This document shows, piece after piece, positions 24,005 through 64,000 of a DNA stretch of 64,000 bases. The notes beneath the pieces are model-generated. The model saw only the letters and a list, made by a program, of their open reading frames with translations. It was not told the DNA's origin and made no database searches. A program made the position numbers and the translations under genes. The first letter of the stretch is position 1, and each line of letters starts with the position of its first letter. This stretch comes from Leisingera sp. ANG-Vp (GTDB lineage: Bacteria; Pseudomonadota; Alphaproteobacteria; Rhodobacterales; Rhodobacteraceae). Location of the stretch: the NCBI RefSeq assembly GCF_000813725.1, contig NZ_JWLD01000027.1, positions 1-64,000 of the forward strand, given 5' to 3'.

Positions 24005-24229
24005 AAATTGTCGAATGCCAAGCAAAACTGACCTTCTTGTCAGGTTTTTGACCCAATTCCCGTTATCTGCTCGCGGGGTCTGTTAGGTTTGATCTGACTT
24101 CCTTCAGGAAAATTAGGGCTGATTTGCAGATTCAATCGGCGAAGTTGCCTGTTCTTGCTGAGCCATCAGTTGCTATGAGCACCAGGCCGGATTGCTGCGG
24201 GCGCAGTCGGTCACTAGCAGCCCTAAGCA
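24005..24229 (+). repeat. 225-bp dispersed repeat, copy A
   Basis: This stretch aligns end to end with the reverse complement of 60542-60766, at roughly 85% identity by eye and almost without gaps. It contains two short hairpins: CTGAC-cttctt-GTCAG-like at about 24029, and a TTCCT/AGGAA stem near 24105. A 77-codon frame runs through it, but conservation is not codon-shaped. I see no transposase. The 434 bp from 24230 to 24663 hold no gene I can support. Confidence 0.75.
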
Positions 24230-60036: not shown

Positions 60037-60975
60037 CCTGCGCTGCAAGAGCTGCCACCCTCGCTGTCGCTGCATTGTTTCGAAGTTATTACTAAGCCCG
60101 CCCGCTCGATCTGTGGGCGGGCACTTGAGTTCTCTGACATGATCTTTCGGAGAACTATTCCCAACAGAATACTGTTTCCTCCTTAGAGCACCCCTTGGCA
60201 GCGGGGCCATAGCCTGCGTGGATAGTGCCTTCTCGATTTCAATTGGCTGCTTTCTCTGAGGCAGAGGGGGCGCTGAAGCAGCGAACTTCCTCTTCCGGCA
60301 CTTCCAGCGGAGCGCCGCAGGCAAAGAGCACGGTTTGCCGCCAATAAAGCAAGTTGCAGCGAATTTTCACTTTGTCCGGCAGACTGTGAGTTCGATCATC
60401 TCCAGATTTTGCTCGCGCAGCGAATGACCGGAAAGCGGGCTGCGCCTGCAGCAACGTGAGGGTAGGGCGAAGGTCCGGAATGGCCCGGTTCCCGCCCTTT
60501 GTGCATGACAGGCGAAGAGCGAACAGCAGCTCGGATCGTGTCTGCTTCGGACTGCTAGTGCCCGGCTGCGCCCGCAGCAATCCGGCCTCGTGCTCATAGC
60601 TGATGACGGCTCAGCAGGTACAGACGGCTTCCCCGATTGTACCTGCAAATCAGCCCTGATTTTCCTGAAGGAAGTCAGTTCAAGCGCAACAGAACCCGCG
60701 AGTCGAAAACGGGAATTGGGTCAACAACCTGACAAGAAGGTCAGTTTTGCCCAGCATTCGACAAATTTGTGTCAGATGTCGGCCAAAACTGACTCAATGG
60801 GAGCCGTTTCCTGGGGAAATTTGCCCGCGCGGGCCAGGCATTTCCAGCCCAAGTGTCAAGCATTTCTGACCCAAACCGGACCTTCAGAACAGGATGCGAA
60901 ATGGGCTAGATGCGGGACTTACCTGCCGTCCGTTTCAGTATGGTGAATGGCTGCTTTCGACTCCGCTGTCGAGAA
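60037..60975. other. Gene-free gap holding repeats
   Basis: The 939 bp between choV and the convergent TfuA gene have no credible gene. They hold a degenerate repeat at about 60385-60540 (GCAGCGAATGACCG at 60417) and the second copy of the 225-bp repeat at 60542-60766. The last 200 bp hold nothing I recognise. Confidence 0.6.
60542..60766 (-). repeat. 225-bp dispersed repeat, copy B (inverted)
   Basis: The reverse complement of this stretch matches 24005-24229 along its whole length, at about 85% identity by eye. The most conserved blocks are AAAACTGACCTTCTTGTCAG, CTGACTTCCTTCAGGAAAAT and GGCCGGATTGCTGCGGGCGC. Copies A and B are inverted relative to each other and about 36 kb apart. Confidence 0.75.
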
Positions 60976-62232
60976 TCAACGGGGACGAAAACATGAAATA
61001 TCGGATTGCTTATGTGCGCCGTGGTCGGTTGAGTTTCTCATTTTACCAAAGGAGCGCGCCGCTCGGTTCGCAGCTATTGCATGGCACGCATCTTCAACCC
61101 AAACAATGGGAATGGCGCCAAAGAGCTTTCCGTCCGAAACCTCAGATCTGAGGCTTTCCCAATCAGACAACCCATGCCGTACCGCAATCTCTTCTTGCAC
61201 CCATCTAAGTTGCGCGTCCATGATGTCTGATGCCCGGGAATGCGCTGTGTGAGCGGCGGCCCATCGAGCGATCTCCGCCTCTAACTCGTCCATGAACGCC
61301 ATCTCAAACCAGAATGACTGTGCCAAACTGTCAAAATCGTTCAGCTTCTTCGCCATGACCTTTACCAAAATCTCGCGCGTGGTTTCCGCCTGCTCGTCCT
61401 TTGGCAAAGCTTGGAGCTCCGAAAAATCTGATGCGCCGATCACAATGGGCCAGATATAGGCCTGATACCTCCCGCTCCCGAACAACCAACGCAGAAGGCG
61501 CGGCTTCAGCTCATCTTCGGTTAGACCAAATTTGGCGTCAGATCCATGATAGCGCTGTTGTGGACCCAACTGCGCGATCCGTCGCAGACCCTGTTTCGGG
61601 GCCTGATCTTTTGAAAAGAAACGCGCGGCCAAATTTGCATCCCGTGCTTTGAGATCAAAGGCAACCATCTTCCGAGCAATGTCTTCCGAAATATCCGCGT
61701 CCGTGCCCCAAGTCCGAAGGTCACGCTCAGAATAATGTAGTTTTGACGCCGTCCTCAAGATGTGCCGCGATTGCGGTTCAGAGATCAAGCCAAAACGCTC
61801 AAGGCAACGCAGTGCATAGCGTACATTGATCAACGCATACGTGATCGCGGCATCCTTCGCTGCGGGATTCGTCAATACCGCCACCTCGTCATCGCTCGTT
61901 AGGATACCGCGCCTATAAAGCCGGTAAATCGAGCCGTATCCTTTCATACCCGCAGGCCAACATTCAGCCGCGCGCAAAGCCCCCATGCTGGAGGCGCCCG
62001 CGACCTCGGCGCCATCTTTCAGCACATCCATGACCTCTCGCGGTGAAACAGCCAAAGTCTGAGAAAAGACACCATCTATTATCAACATCCTACGAGCACC
62101 ATTTGCGCGCGCGCGATAAAGGTCCCCCCGCGCGATCGGCGGCAAAAAGTCAGCCTTTGGCAAGTATTTTTGCAGGTCAGAAATCTTGGCTGTCGGTCCA
62201 ACGAATACGACGTCCGAGGTATGCGTGGTCAT
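60976..62232 (-). CDS. TfuA-like protein
   Basis: This 418-residue protein has the TfuA domain in its first half (residues about 8-230): VVFVGPTAKISDL, PPIARGDLYRA, LIIDGVFSQTLAVSPREVMDVL and ASSMGALRAAECWPAGMKGYGSIYRLYRRG. TfuA proteins accompany YcaO enzymes in trifolitoxin biosynthesis and in thioamidation of methyl-coenzyme M reductase, where they are thought to deliver or release sulfide. The C-terminal 190 residues are not recognised. Its ATG overlaps the YcaO stop by 4 bp (ATGA), so the two are translationally coupled. Confidence 0.88.
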   Translation of the reverse strand: MTTHTSDVVFVGPTAKISDLQKYLPKADFLPPIARGDLYRARANGARRMLIIDGVFSQTLAVSPREVMDVLKDGAEVAGASSMGALRAAECWPAGMKGYGSIYRLYRRGILTSDDEVAVLTNPAAKDAAITYALINVRYALRCLERFGLISEPQSRHILRTASKLHYSERDLRTWGTDADISEDIARKMVAFDLKARDANLAARFFSKDQAPKQGLRRIAQLGPQQRYHGSDAKFGLTEDELKPRLLRWLFGSGRYQAYIWPIVIGASDFSELQALPKDEQAETTREILVKVMAKKLNDFDSLAQSFWFEMAFMDELEAEIARWAAAHTAHSRASDIMDAQLRWVQEEIAVRHGLSDWESLRSEVSDGKLFGAIPIVWVEDACHAIAANRAARSFGKMRNSTDHGAHKQSDISCFRPR

Positions 62233-63503
62233 ATCAAGCTCCTCAGCAACCGATCACCTGGGAGACGAGTAGTGAAGCTATAGGGGCATTCCAACCCCGG
62301 TACCACAACGCGAACCACTGGCACGCCTAACTCAGCGCGCGTCATGTTTACCACAATGCACCGGTCCAGACCAACCGTGCGCATCGCCTTCAAAGCCCGG
62401 TTTGTGTTGCGCGCAATGTCCTCGTCACCGTCGCTAACAAAATCAAACGTGGCCAATGCGTCCGGGTTCAAGACACGGATACGTCGCAACAAGCGGCTTG
62501 CCCGATCTGGTCGCGGCCTCATACCTTCAATTGCGTCGCGTGCGCCTAGGAGGGTTACGGAATGCGCCTGCACAGCTTCTGTCACAGCGCGCAGCGCGGC
62601 GCGCCCTGCATCGTAGTCACAGCCGTGGCCAACAAAAACAGTGTCTCGATTCATATTCCCCGGAAAACGACGCGTGAGTACATGGGCGGCGATCACCGGG
62701 ACGCCTAAGTCCGAGGTCTGATCCTGAAACGTGACCACGCAGTTTTCGCTCCGCAATCGTGCGACCCAGTCCGCAACGGTTGGTGGCAGAGTGTGTGTGC
62801 TAAGCATGCGAGGCTGAAATCGCGGCCCGTCGGCGGCCTCGCCGTGCTCCTCAATGAACCGGTCTATCGAGGCCGCGTCTCTTTCAATCACCTCATAGAT
62901 GGCGTGCAGGGTCGCTTCAGCAATACTGTTCCCGGACGCTAGGCCGTTTGTCTCTACCCCTTGAAAAACACCGTCTTGAGGTGGCGTGATCACAGCATCA
63001 GAGGGCAACCAAATCTCAGTCTTCTGCTGTACATCATACCCTTTGGTCCAGTGGATGGATGTTTTATTCGTCAACCTTCCTTGCGCGGGTGCGTTCAGAT
63101 CCCCAGGCGTCACGATTGGCAAATCCTGACGCTCTAGCAGGCAGGAAAGACTGCATCGAACCTGCCGATCGCTCGGCAAGCTCTCTCCGCAGACCCTTTC
63201 TATTGCTTCCATGATTGCGCTTGCTTTGGCAGCCTCCGGTGTCTCGCCCTTGCCGGAATGCACAGTGATATCTGCCGCCAGCGGTGTAACGGCGCCCCAA
63301 ACAGGCAATCCAAGACTGTCAATCGTGCTAAGGTCATAGACCCGTGTGACCGGCACCTTGGGAAGGATCGGGGCAACCGTAGCAAGAGTGTCTGAGATGA
63401 GTCTAACATGCCCTGATGCTGTCACGATGGGCTGCGGGTCAAAATCCGAAGCGCACAAACCACTTTGAACGCTGACAAAATCTGACGTCGTACTCAAGCT
63501 CAT
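62229..63503 (-). CDS. YcaO cyclodehydratase/thioamide synthetase family protein
   Basis: This 424-residue protein has the YcaO ATP-binding signature: KASAIMEAIERVCGE (residues 94-107) and LASGNSIAEATLHAIYEVIERDA (188-210), followed by GMRPRPDRASRLL-type and VPVVRVVVPGLECP segments. YcaO enzymes phosphorylate a peptide amide to form azolines or, with TfuA, thioamides. It ends TTRLPGDRLLRSLI and lacks the C-terminal PxPxP that azoline-forming members often carry, which favours thioamidation. The chosen ATG at 63503 has weak spacing to GGGAAG, and the frame is open upstream to 63605. Confidence 0.87.
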   Translation of the reverse strand: MSLSTTSDFVSVQSGLCASDFDPQPIVTASGHVRLISDTLATVAPILPKVPVTRVYDLSTIDSLGLPVWGAVTPLAADITVHSGKGETPEAAKASAIMEAIERVCGESLPSDRQVRCSLSCLLERQDLPIVTPGDLNAPAQGRLTNKTSIHWTKGYDVQQKTEIWLPSDAVITPPQDGVFQGVETNGLASGNSIAEATLHAIYEVIERDAASIDRFIEEHGEAADGPRFQPRMLSTHTLPPTVADWVARLRSENCVVTFQDQTSDLGVPVIAAHVLTRRFPGNMNRDTVFVGHGCDYDAGRAALRAVTEAVQAHSVTLLGARDAIEGMRPRPDRASRLLRRIRVLNPDALATFDFVSDGDEDIARNTNRALKAMRTVGLDRCIVVNMTRAELGVPVVRVVVPGLECPYSFTTRLPGDRLLRSLI

Positions 63504-63531
63504 CTTCCCGTACAAAAATTGACAAAGCGAC

Positions 63532-64000
63532 CTAGGACCCGGTCTCTCTGGGGATGTGTTGGTGTGCCCACTGACGTTTGAAGACACCGCGTTGCTTGAT
63601 TGCATCGAGCGTATTCAAGTGTTCTGTTGCCCATGAGCAGATGGTCTGTTGCCCCAATTGTTTGGAGACCTCGACCAAGGCTTCAGCCGCGGAAATAGCT
63701 TGTGGGTCCAGCGAAAGCGCAGCAAGATACGCATCGCCCGCCTGGTGCAGATCATCCAGCGCTTCCAAACATTGCCCGATCATGAACCACGCAATCTCGC
63801 GCCCCGGAGGTGCCAGCTCCGCTGCGTGCCGATAGGCTTTCAATGCTTGCTCGAATTCGTCGCGCTCAATGTGAACCTCGCCCAGCTGAAGCCAAACACG
63901 AGAGTCATTGGGGGAAATCCGGGTCAAGCGCTGAATCCGTGACAAAGCAAGCTCGGTATCTCCGTTCCAAAGTGCTTCCTTGGTTCGACTCTCAATAACA
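63532..64000 (-). CDS. TPR repeat protein, 3' part only
   Basis: The frame is open through the window edge, so the N-terminus is missing; about 156 residues are visible. They form tetratricopeptide repeats, for example NDSRVWLQLGEVHIERDEFEQALKAYRHAAELAPPG, then IAWFMIGQCLEALDDLHQAGDAYLAALSLDPQAISAAEALVEVSKQLG. It ends 28 bp before the YcaO start and is probably the preceding gene in the same operon. It may recruit a peptide or protein substrate, by analogy with TPR proteins near other modification enzymes. Confidence 0.75.
   Translation of the reverse strand, partial: VIESRTKEALWNGDTELALSRIQRLTRISPNDSRVWLQLGEVHIERDEFEQALKAYRHAAELAPPGREIAWFMIGQCLEALDDLHQAGDAYLAALSLDPQAISAAEALVEVSKQLGQQTICSWATEHLNTLDAIKQRGVFKRQWAHQHIPRETGS

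What the first reader, a model, noticed from the sequence alone, without database searches (positions are those of the whole stretch)
60976..64000. TfuA-YcaO-TPR locus: candidate thioamide or azoline peptide modification system
TfuA and YcaO overlap by ATGA and follow a TPR gene. TfuA-YcaO pairs install backbone thioamides or azolines. No precursor peptide is visible downstream, so the substrate is either encoded beyond the window or is a cellular protein recruited by the TPR protein. The YcaO lacks a C-terminal PxPxP, and the TfuA has an unrecognised C-terminal half of about 190 residues. The adjacent repeat suggests acquisition.
Basis: partly seen in the sequence, partly recalled or inferred. 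Interest (0 to 1): 0.75.

Follow-up and report, generated by a model that had tools for sequence, protein, structure and literature searches.

The report
Thioamide peptide cluster with nearby precursors
A mobile-looking bacterial gene cluster that probably makes a small peptide, swaps backbone oxygen for sulfur and adds a halogen; its likely peptide genes sit about one kilobase beyond the edge of the sequence first examined.

Summary
The TfuA-YcaO-TPR genes are real. The contig continues past the window, and precursor candidates lie there. On the same strand, upstream of TPR, are pepA (64 aa, C-terminal Trp) and pepB (22 aa), then a hairpin, then TPR-YcaO-TfuA. Divergent to them are a 703-aa protein without detectable relatives and a flavin-dependent halogenase-type enzyme. 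Inverted repeats of 212 nt bracket the set; homology to one congener stops 0.2 kb outside the right arm.

A 39%-identical TPR protein on two Streptomyces plasmids is also preceded by a 22-aa ORF and a hairpin, with no YcaO found nearby. That 22-mer ranks first against PepB among 9,866 small ORFs, but with E=2.8.

Best explanation: an acquired RiPP cluster in which YcaO-TfuA thioamidates PepA, the halogenase acts on its Trp and the TPR protein binds the peptide(s). Thioamide is likelier than azoline. All chemistry is inferred. The cellular-substrate idea is not needed. New variant of a known kind; the TPR + 22-mer module may be its newest part.

The parts
60559..60770 (.). left arm of the inverted repeat that brackets the cluster; the right arm is at contig 69264-69475, beyond the window
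   Evidence: 212 nt, 89% complementary
60976..62232 (-). TfuA, 418 aa: proposed sulfide-releasing partner of YcaO
   Evidence: PF07812 133.4 bits, cut-off 30; 6xp8 by sequence E=2e-28 and by fold E=3.3e-16
62229..63605 (-). YcaO, 458 aa as the longest ORF, probably 424 aa from the ATG at 63503
   Evidence: PF02624 E=7.8e-64; start judged from relatives
63532..64000 (-). TPR protein, the part inside the window; it continues to contig 64836 (434 aa). Further parts beyond the window on the same contig (C64 numbering continues the window's): hairpin 64863-64891(-); pepB 64906-64974(-), 22 aa; pepA 65012-65206(-), 64 aa; 703-aa gene 65352-67463(+); halogenase-type gene 67477-68967(+); right repeat arm 69264-69475

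Best explanation
A horizontally acquired RiPP gene cluster of about 9 kb. Shown: pepA, pepB, a hairpin, TPR, YcaO and TfuA in that order on one strand, a 703-aa gene and a halogenase-type gene divergent, all inside a pair of inverted repeats. Inferred: PepA is the main precursor. YcaO, using ATP, activates one or more backbone amides in its C-terminal part and TfuA delivers sulfide, giving thioamides. The TPR protein binds PepA and/or PepB and presents them to the enzymes. The flavin enzyme halogenates the C-terminal Trp of PepA. A protease, possibly the 703-aa protein, removes the leader.
For: TfuA and YcaO intact and adjacent; thioamidation-type relatives rank first. pepA and pepB have Shine-Dalgarno-like sequences GGGAGG and AAAGGA and codon scores that are highest in the proposed frame of six. 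A hairpin separates peptide genes from enzyme genes. In all 4 of the nearest Mesorhizobium/S. fredii pairs examined a 67-72-aa ORF stands just upstream of ycaO (L013, L020, L021; L022), so this YcaO group usually has a small ORF there. Halogenase-type enzyme by family and solved relatives. Inverted repeats and a break of synteny mark one unit. TPR + 22-mer + hairpin recurs on Streptomyces plasmids.
Against: PepA has no detectable relative. The equivalog cut-offs for thioamidation YcaO and TfuA are not met. Codon scores are weak evidence: YcaO itself scores -0.03 and the 703-aa gene 0.00 with the same model. None of the 80 related YcaO loci has a clear TPR-protein homologue or a 703-aa homologue. 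No transporter gene is seen inside the repeats. The S. cadmiisoli locus, the closest YcaO, gave no convincing precursor. No chemistry was measured.
Confidence: 0.6

Rival explanations
1. TPR and PepB are a peptide-signalling or regulatory pair (in the manner of RRNPP receptors, recalled) that controls the cluster, and only PepA is a YcaO substrate.
For: A short peptide ORF sits next to a TPR gene in three loci, and in the plasmid loci no YcaO or TfuA was found in the 18.5-19.3 kb stretches.
Against: The TPR gene stands in line with YcaO and TfuA, 28 nt before the probable YcaO start. No DNA-binding domain was found in the TPR protein. PepB has no hydrophobic export-type stretch (sequence).
Confidence: 0.2
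2. The 703-aa gene and the halogenase-type gene are a separate, unrelated cassette that only shares the island; the YcaO-TfuA product is thioamidated but not halogenated.
For: They lie on the opposite strand and are not shared by related YcaO loci: a 703-aa homologue in 0 of 80, a clear halogenase relative in 1 of 80 (L079) and a weak one in 1 of 80 (L051).
Against: They lie between the same repeat arms, with no other large assigned gene between them and pepA. PepA offers one encoded Trp, at its C-terminus.
Confidence: 0.25
3. YcaO-TfuA modifies a cellular protein brought by the TPR protein; pepA and pepB are chance or regulatory ORFs.
For: McrA in archaea and uL16 in E. coli are protein substrates of YcaO enzymes (PMC5589413, start of abstract in listing; PMC13063428, passages). 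PepA is an orphan.
Against: The TPR gene and the 703-aa gene are absent from the other 294 family genomes sampled, which is unlike a housekeeping modification; PMC13063428 says no TfuA is encoded near suspected uL16-modifying YcaO enzymes; the E. coli-type YcaO model scores 26 of 700 bits.
Confidence: 0.1
4. YcaO makes azolines rather than thioamides.
For: PepA has one Cys and Ser/Thr in its C-terminal part; the SagD model matches at 127 bits.
Against: The SagD cut-off of 219 is not met, TfuA is adjacent and no PxPxP is present.
Confidence: 0.08

Closest known systems
YcaO-TfuA thioamidated RiPP clusters (surveys PMC8120280, passages; PMC6511847, listing and an empty word search)
   Same: adjacent YcaO and TfuA; a small ORF as precursor candidate upstream; sporadic distribution (TfuA in 9 of 149 family genomes)
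   Different: TPR protein with a second, 22-aa peptide ORF, a halogenase-type enzyme and an orphan 703-aa protein; the words tpr, tetratricopeptide, halogenase and caspase occur 0 times in the main text of PMC8120280
YcaO-TfuA clusters of Mesorhizobium and Sinorhizobium fredii (L013, L020-L022)
   Same: the next-closest YcaO (35-37%) and long TfuA of 396-407 aa
   Different: 67-72-aa precursor candidates of another sequence; a haem-oxygenase-like gene next to ycaO in L013, L020 and L021; no TPR-protein or halogenase homologue
Carrier-type flavin-dependent halogenases (3e1t, which I recall as CndH; CmlS 3i3l)
   Same: 354 bits over about 400 residues with 3e1t, 209 with CmlS
   Different: substrate unknown; CmlS equivalog cut-off not met (256 of 900)
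Pearlin pathways with TPR proteins (BhaC1, AmmC1, AmmC2; PMC9850906 and PMC12424672, passages)
   Same: a TPR protein beside a scaffold peptide that carries a C-terminal Trp, plus a flavin halogenase in the ammosamide cluster
   Different: here the Trp is encoded, no peptide aminoacyl-tRNA ligase domain was found among the five large genes, and the TPR protein was not compared with those sequences
Leader-guided peptidyl brominase (PMC10286304, start of abstract in listing)
   Same: a halogenase acting on a C-terminal Trp of a ribosomal peptide
   Different: no sequence comparison was made; no thioamidation mentioned in what I saw

Membership tests
YcaO-TfuA thioamidated RiPP cluster | intact YcaO kinase domain adjacent to TfuA | tested here: met
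   TIGR00702 162 bits, cut-off 75.65
YcaO-TfuA thioamidated RiPP cluster | precursor peptide gene in the cluster | tested here: inconclusive
   pepA and pepB found, coding signal weakly supportive, no homologue of pepA
YcaO-TfuA thioamidated RiPP cluster | thioamide in the product | not testable with these tools
   needs mass spectrometry
McrA glycine thioamidation pair | equivalog cut-offs of TIGR03266 and NF033432 | tested here: not met
   198 of 365 and 167.6 of 235.2 bits
E. coli-type YcaO (uL16) | NF040716 cut-off | tested here: not met
   26.4 of 700 bits
Azoline-forming YcaO (SagD type) | TIGR03604 cut-off and C-terminal PxPxP | tested here: not met
   127.2 of 219.25 bits; C-terminus RLLRSLI
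Flavin-dependent halogenase | PF04820 over cut-off and closest solved relatives are halogenases | tested here: met
   141.5 bits, cut-off 21; five of the first six of 17 PDB sequence hits are named halogenase or CmlS, the sixth is ChlB4
Flavin-dependent halogenase | halogenation activity | not testable with these tools
   sequences GFIRKPG, WAWFLP and FLDPLFTTG resemble signatures that I recall; no call tests this
Pearlin pathway | peptide aminoacyl-tRNA ligase (LanB-like) in the cluster | tested here: not met
   no such domain in Pfam scans of the five large genes
BhaC1/AmmC1-type Trp hydroxylase | sequence similarity beyond the TPR part and bound FMN | not tested
   those sequences were not at hand
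Caspase/gingipain/CHAT-like protease (703-aa protein) | profile match to C25, CHAT or C14 families | tested here: not met
   no Pfam match to them; hhalign against 3 C25-like and 8 CHAT proteins gave probabilities below 1%; C14 only through Pfam

The most novel reading that the evidence does not exclude
The TPR protein and a 22-aa peptide gene, separated by a hairpin, form an undescribed peptide-handling module shared by Alphaproteobacteria and Actinomycetota. Here it has been joined to YcaO-TfuA and a halogenase to make a thioamidated, Trp-halogenated RiPP, possibly from two cooperating precursors.
Probability: 0.3. Interest if true: 0.72.

Novelty: new variant of a known kind. Interest (0 to 1): 0.55.

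Why it matters
It turns a TfuA-YcaO pair without a known substrate into a compact pathway with two named candidate precursors. It joins thioamidation with a halogenase-type enzyme, a combination that none of the six literature listings I saw (titles and abstract starts) describes. It also points to a TPR + 22-aa peptide module that mining rules based on leader-binding domains or longer precursors could miss. A halogenated, encoded C-terminal Trp would parallel pearlin scaffolds without tRNA-dependent addition.

Tried and rejected
703-aa protein as a caspase/gingipain-like protease: suggested only by an H...C pair seen by eye (GGHS, YNGC). Pfam on the whole and on two halves (one sub-threshold DUF7129 hit, E=0.077), NCBIfam (one sub-threshold hit, E=0.029), PADLOC, PDB sequences, plasmids (none; only hits with E of 3 or more among the 15 of 22 rows shown), 295 and 398 genomes, viral contigs and hhalign gave no support. 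Its AlphaFold model has mean pLDDT 36 and was not used.

TfuA C-terminal half as a peptide-recognition domain: the 29-sequence model (mean pLDDT 74) is confident to about residue 210 only; Foldseek gives 6xp8 as the one match at E<=0.001. No conclusion on that half.

More TPR relatives: genome contigs, 50 stretches matched a pattern, 0 confirmed; viral contigs, 82 matched, 0 confirmed; plasmids, 3 records. The two collection scans rest on two short patterns each, so absence is weak.

PepA relatives: none in plasmids at E<=10; the best of 9,866 small ORFs has E=18. An NCBIfam/Pfam scan of the small peptides was tried and never completed because of coordinate errors of mine.

Empty site: only the right boundary could be placed. 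The left-flank sequence finds 67-77% matches in 9 of 9 congeners, not judged to be the same place.

Azoline chemistry and a cellular substrate were considered and ranked lower (see rivals).

Literature: listings; passages of PMC13063428, PMC8120280, PMC12424672, PMC9850906, PMC12951456, PMC12538549; a word search in PMC6511847 found none of its terms. The TfuA biochemistry paper of 2021 is not held.
Full report
WHAT WAS CHECKED. The window is bases 1-64000 of contig C64 (133,517 bases) of a 5.15-Mb genome, so the cut at 64000 is artificial. In NCBIfam the best models are the archaeal McrA thioamidation pair, below their equivalog cut-offs.

BEYOND THE WINDOW. I fetched C64:58001-92000; contig position = L003 position + 58000. 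The TPR gene reaches 64836 if it starts where its Streptomyces relative starts: 434 aa, roughly 290 residues without a Pfam match and then TPRs. Upstream on the same strand are two small ORFs. pepA (65012-65206) encodes MSKTELGAPKTIATIDFSAEQRKQLEAASGLDGLTGLTLVDLDKEARDRMSPSLVRATVAVLCW after GGGAGG. pepB (64906-64974) encodes MKKKKIKKFETLDSKSPLSVQF after AAAGGA. A 12-pair hairpin (64863-64891) separates pepB from TPR (z -2.55, 1 of 200 shuffles folds as well). Codon scores trained on other ORFs of the contig are highest in the proposed frame of six for both (0.12 and 0.33), but the same model gives -0.03 for YcaO and 0.00 for the 703-aa gene, so this is weak support.

DIVERGENT GENES. On the plus strand are a 703-aa ORF (65352-67463) and a 496-aa flavoprotein (67477-68967). 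The flavoprotein matches PF04820 (141.5 bits, cut-off 21). Its best solved relative is 3e1t, a halogenase that I recall as CndH, 354 bits, against 209 for CmlS and 32 for the peptidyl tryptophan dihydroxylase. By eye it keeps GFIRKPG, WAWFLP and FLDPLFTTG, which resemble halogenase signatures that I recall. The 703-aa protein had no convincing relative in any search made.

ISLAND. Inverted arms of 212 nt, 89% alike, lie at 60559-60770 and 69264-69475; a third copy is at 24005-24213 (86%). The right flank matches 1 of 9 congeners, G1029, at 93%; in 20 kb of that genome the match runs from 69656 outward (91.5% over 6,034 columns) and stops there. The left flank gives 67-77% matches in 9 of 9 congeners, not judged to be the same place. 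The TPR protein is found in 1 of 295 family genomes (E<=1e-10) and 1 of 385 class genomes (E<=1e-20), each time the own genome only. The 703-aa protein is found in 1 of 295 and 1 of 398, again the own genome only. A TfuA of any kind is in 9 of 149 family genomes, the own one included. GC in 500-base bins is 0.46-0.60 inside and 0.61-0.67 from 12.5 kb of L003 on; the left flank, 0.57-0.62, differs little.

THE TPR + SHORT PEPTIDE MODULE. The TPR protein has 39%-identical relatives on two nearly identical Streptomyces plasmid regions and a partial one in Kitasatospora (31.9% over 40%). Upstream of the Streptomyces gene stands MKRNTNNLFQTFNPKRPLTTLV, also 22 aa, after GGAGAA, and between them a strong fold (z -3.89, 0 of 200). 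It shares 7 of 22 residues with PepB without gaps. 14 of 200,000 shuffles reach that score; when each round may choose the best of all 15 x 8 candidate ORF pairs, 2 of 300 do. Searching PepB against 9,866 RBS-preceded small ORFs from 127 loci (seven stretches of this locus left out) puts this 22-mer first, in both plasmids, though with E=2.8. In Kitasatospora a 28-aa ORF and a strong hairpin (z -5.12, 0 of 200) precede the TPR gene; that peptide is not visibly similar. No YcaO or TfuA homologue was found in these three stretches of 18.5-19.3 kb.

RELATED YcaO-TfuA LOCI. A genome scan confirmed 252 relatives and kept the best 80; TfuA was detected in 65 of these 80 stretches. The closest pair is on a Streptomyces cadmiisoli plasmid (L012, YcaO 42%, TfuA 34%), then Mesorhizobium (L020-L022) and Sinorhizobium fredii (L013). 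A 67-72-aa ORF stands just upstream of ycaO in all four of the latter: L013, L020, L021 by an RBS-filtered scan, L022 only without that filter. They resemble each other, not PepA. The same scan found nothing convincing in L012. Of the 80 loci, a TPR-protein hit is in 1 (L087, E=5.5e-5, probably generic), a 703-aa homologue in 0, a clear halogenase relative in 1 (L079, 341 bits) and a weak one in 1 (L051, 30 bits). The second YcaO-TfuA pair of the own genome lies at C133.

MECHANISM. Shown: gene identities, order, boundaries, and the recurrence of TPR + 22-mer in Streptomyces. From the literature: some thioamide-forming YcaO enzymes employ a thiocarboxylated carrier and TfuA as sulfur source (PMC13063428, passage). 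Preferred residues of TfuA-associated YcaOs are a Met in ATP motif 1 and a His in motif 2 (PMC8120280, passage); by eye the window protein has M132 and H234 at what I take to be the matching places. Inferred: PepA as main substrate, because it is a small ORF at the head of the operon; its Trp as the halogenase site, because it is the only Trp in the 64-aa form and PepB has none, and a leader-guided brominase acts on a C-terminal Trp (PMC10286304, start of abstract); the TPR protein as peptide binder, because TPR-domain flavoenzymes are modelled to bind scaffold peptides in pearlin pathways (PMC9850906, passages), and AmmC2, a TPR protein, is proposed for complex assembly (PMC12424672, passage). 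PepB may be a second precursor, a helper or a regulatory ligand. Protease and exporter are not identified.

WHAT SPEAKS AGAINST. PepA has no relative. The PepB similarity rests on one pair and a non-significant E-value. Thioamidation is not demonstrated, and the equivalog cut-offs are not met. Related YcaO loci lack the TPR protein and the 703-aa protein. The structure job on the 703-aa protein failed, and the TfuA model adds only the known N-terminal half.

Noticed in passing
G000:C133:55028-57400 (L001 1285-3851): A second YcaO-TfuA pair (407 and 448 aa) in the same genome; YcaO scores 272.9 bits in Pfam and TfuA 160.6. Its precursor was not sought.
   Followed up: partly
window 24005-24213: A third copy (86%) of the 212-nt repeat that brackets the cluster; possibly a small mobile element remnant.
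   Followed up: no
L079 4253-5659 and 10001-12219 (Streptomyces varsoviensis): A halogenase relative (341 bits) about 4.3 kb from a YcaO-TfuA pair: a possible second case of this pairing, or chance.
   Followed up: no
L013 6688, L020 9709, L021 9711, L022 about 9680: A family of 67-72-aa precursor candidates (MADF/MPDF or MANLPNF, ending CGL or MGL) just upstream of ycaO; a haem-oxygenase-like gene lies divergently in L013, L020 and L021.
   Followed up: partly
L011 8166-12048 (Kitasatospora purpeofusca plasmid): A 28-aa ORF, strong hairpin, TPR gene, a small protein, a membrane-type protein with a weak DoxX match and an MFS transporter in a row: looks like another small-peptide cluster.
   Followed up: partly
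L012 4375-5887 (Streptomyces cadmiisoli plasmid): A JmjC/cupin oxygenase beside a 43-46-aa acidic peptide with a GG site (MNDEKSGEESLTLEEEELIEEEELQDLAGGEQ...), 2 kb from the closest YcaO-TfuA pair.
   Followed up: no
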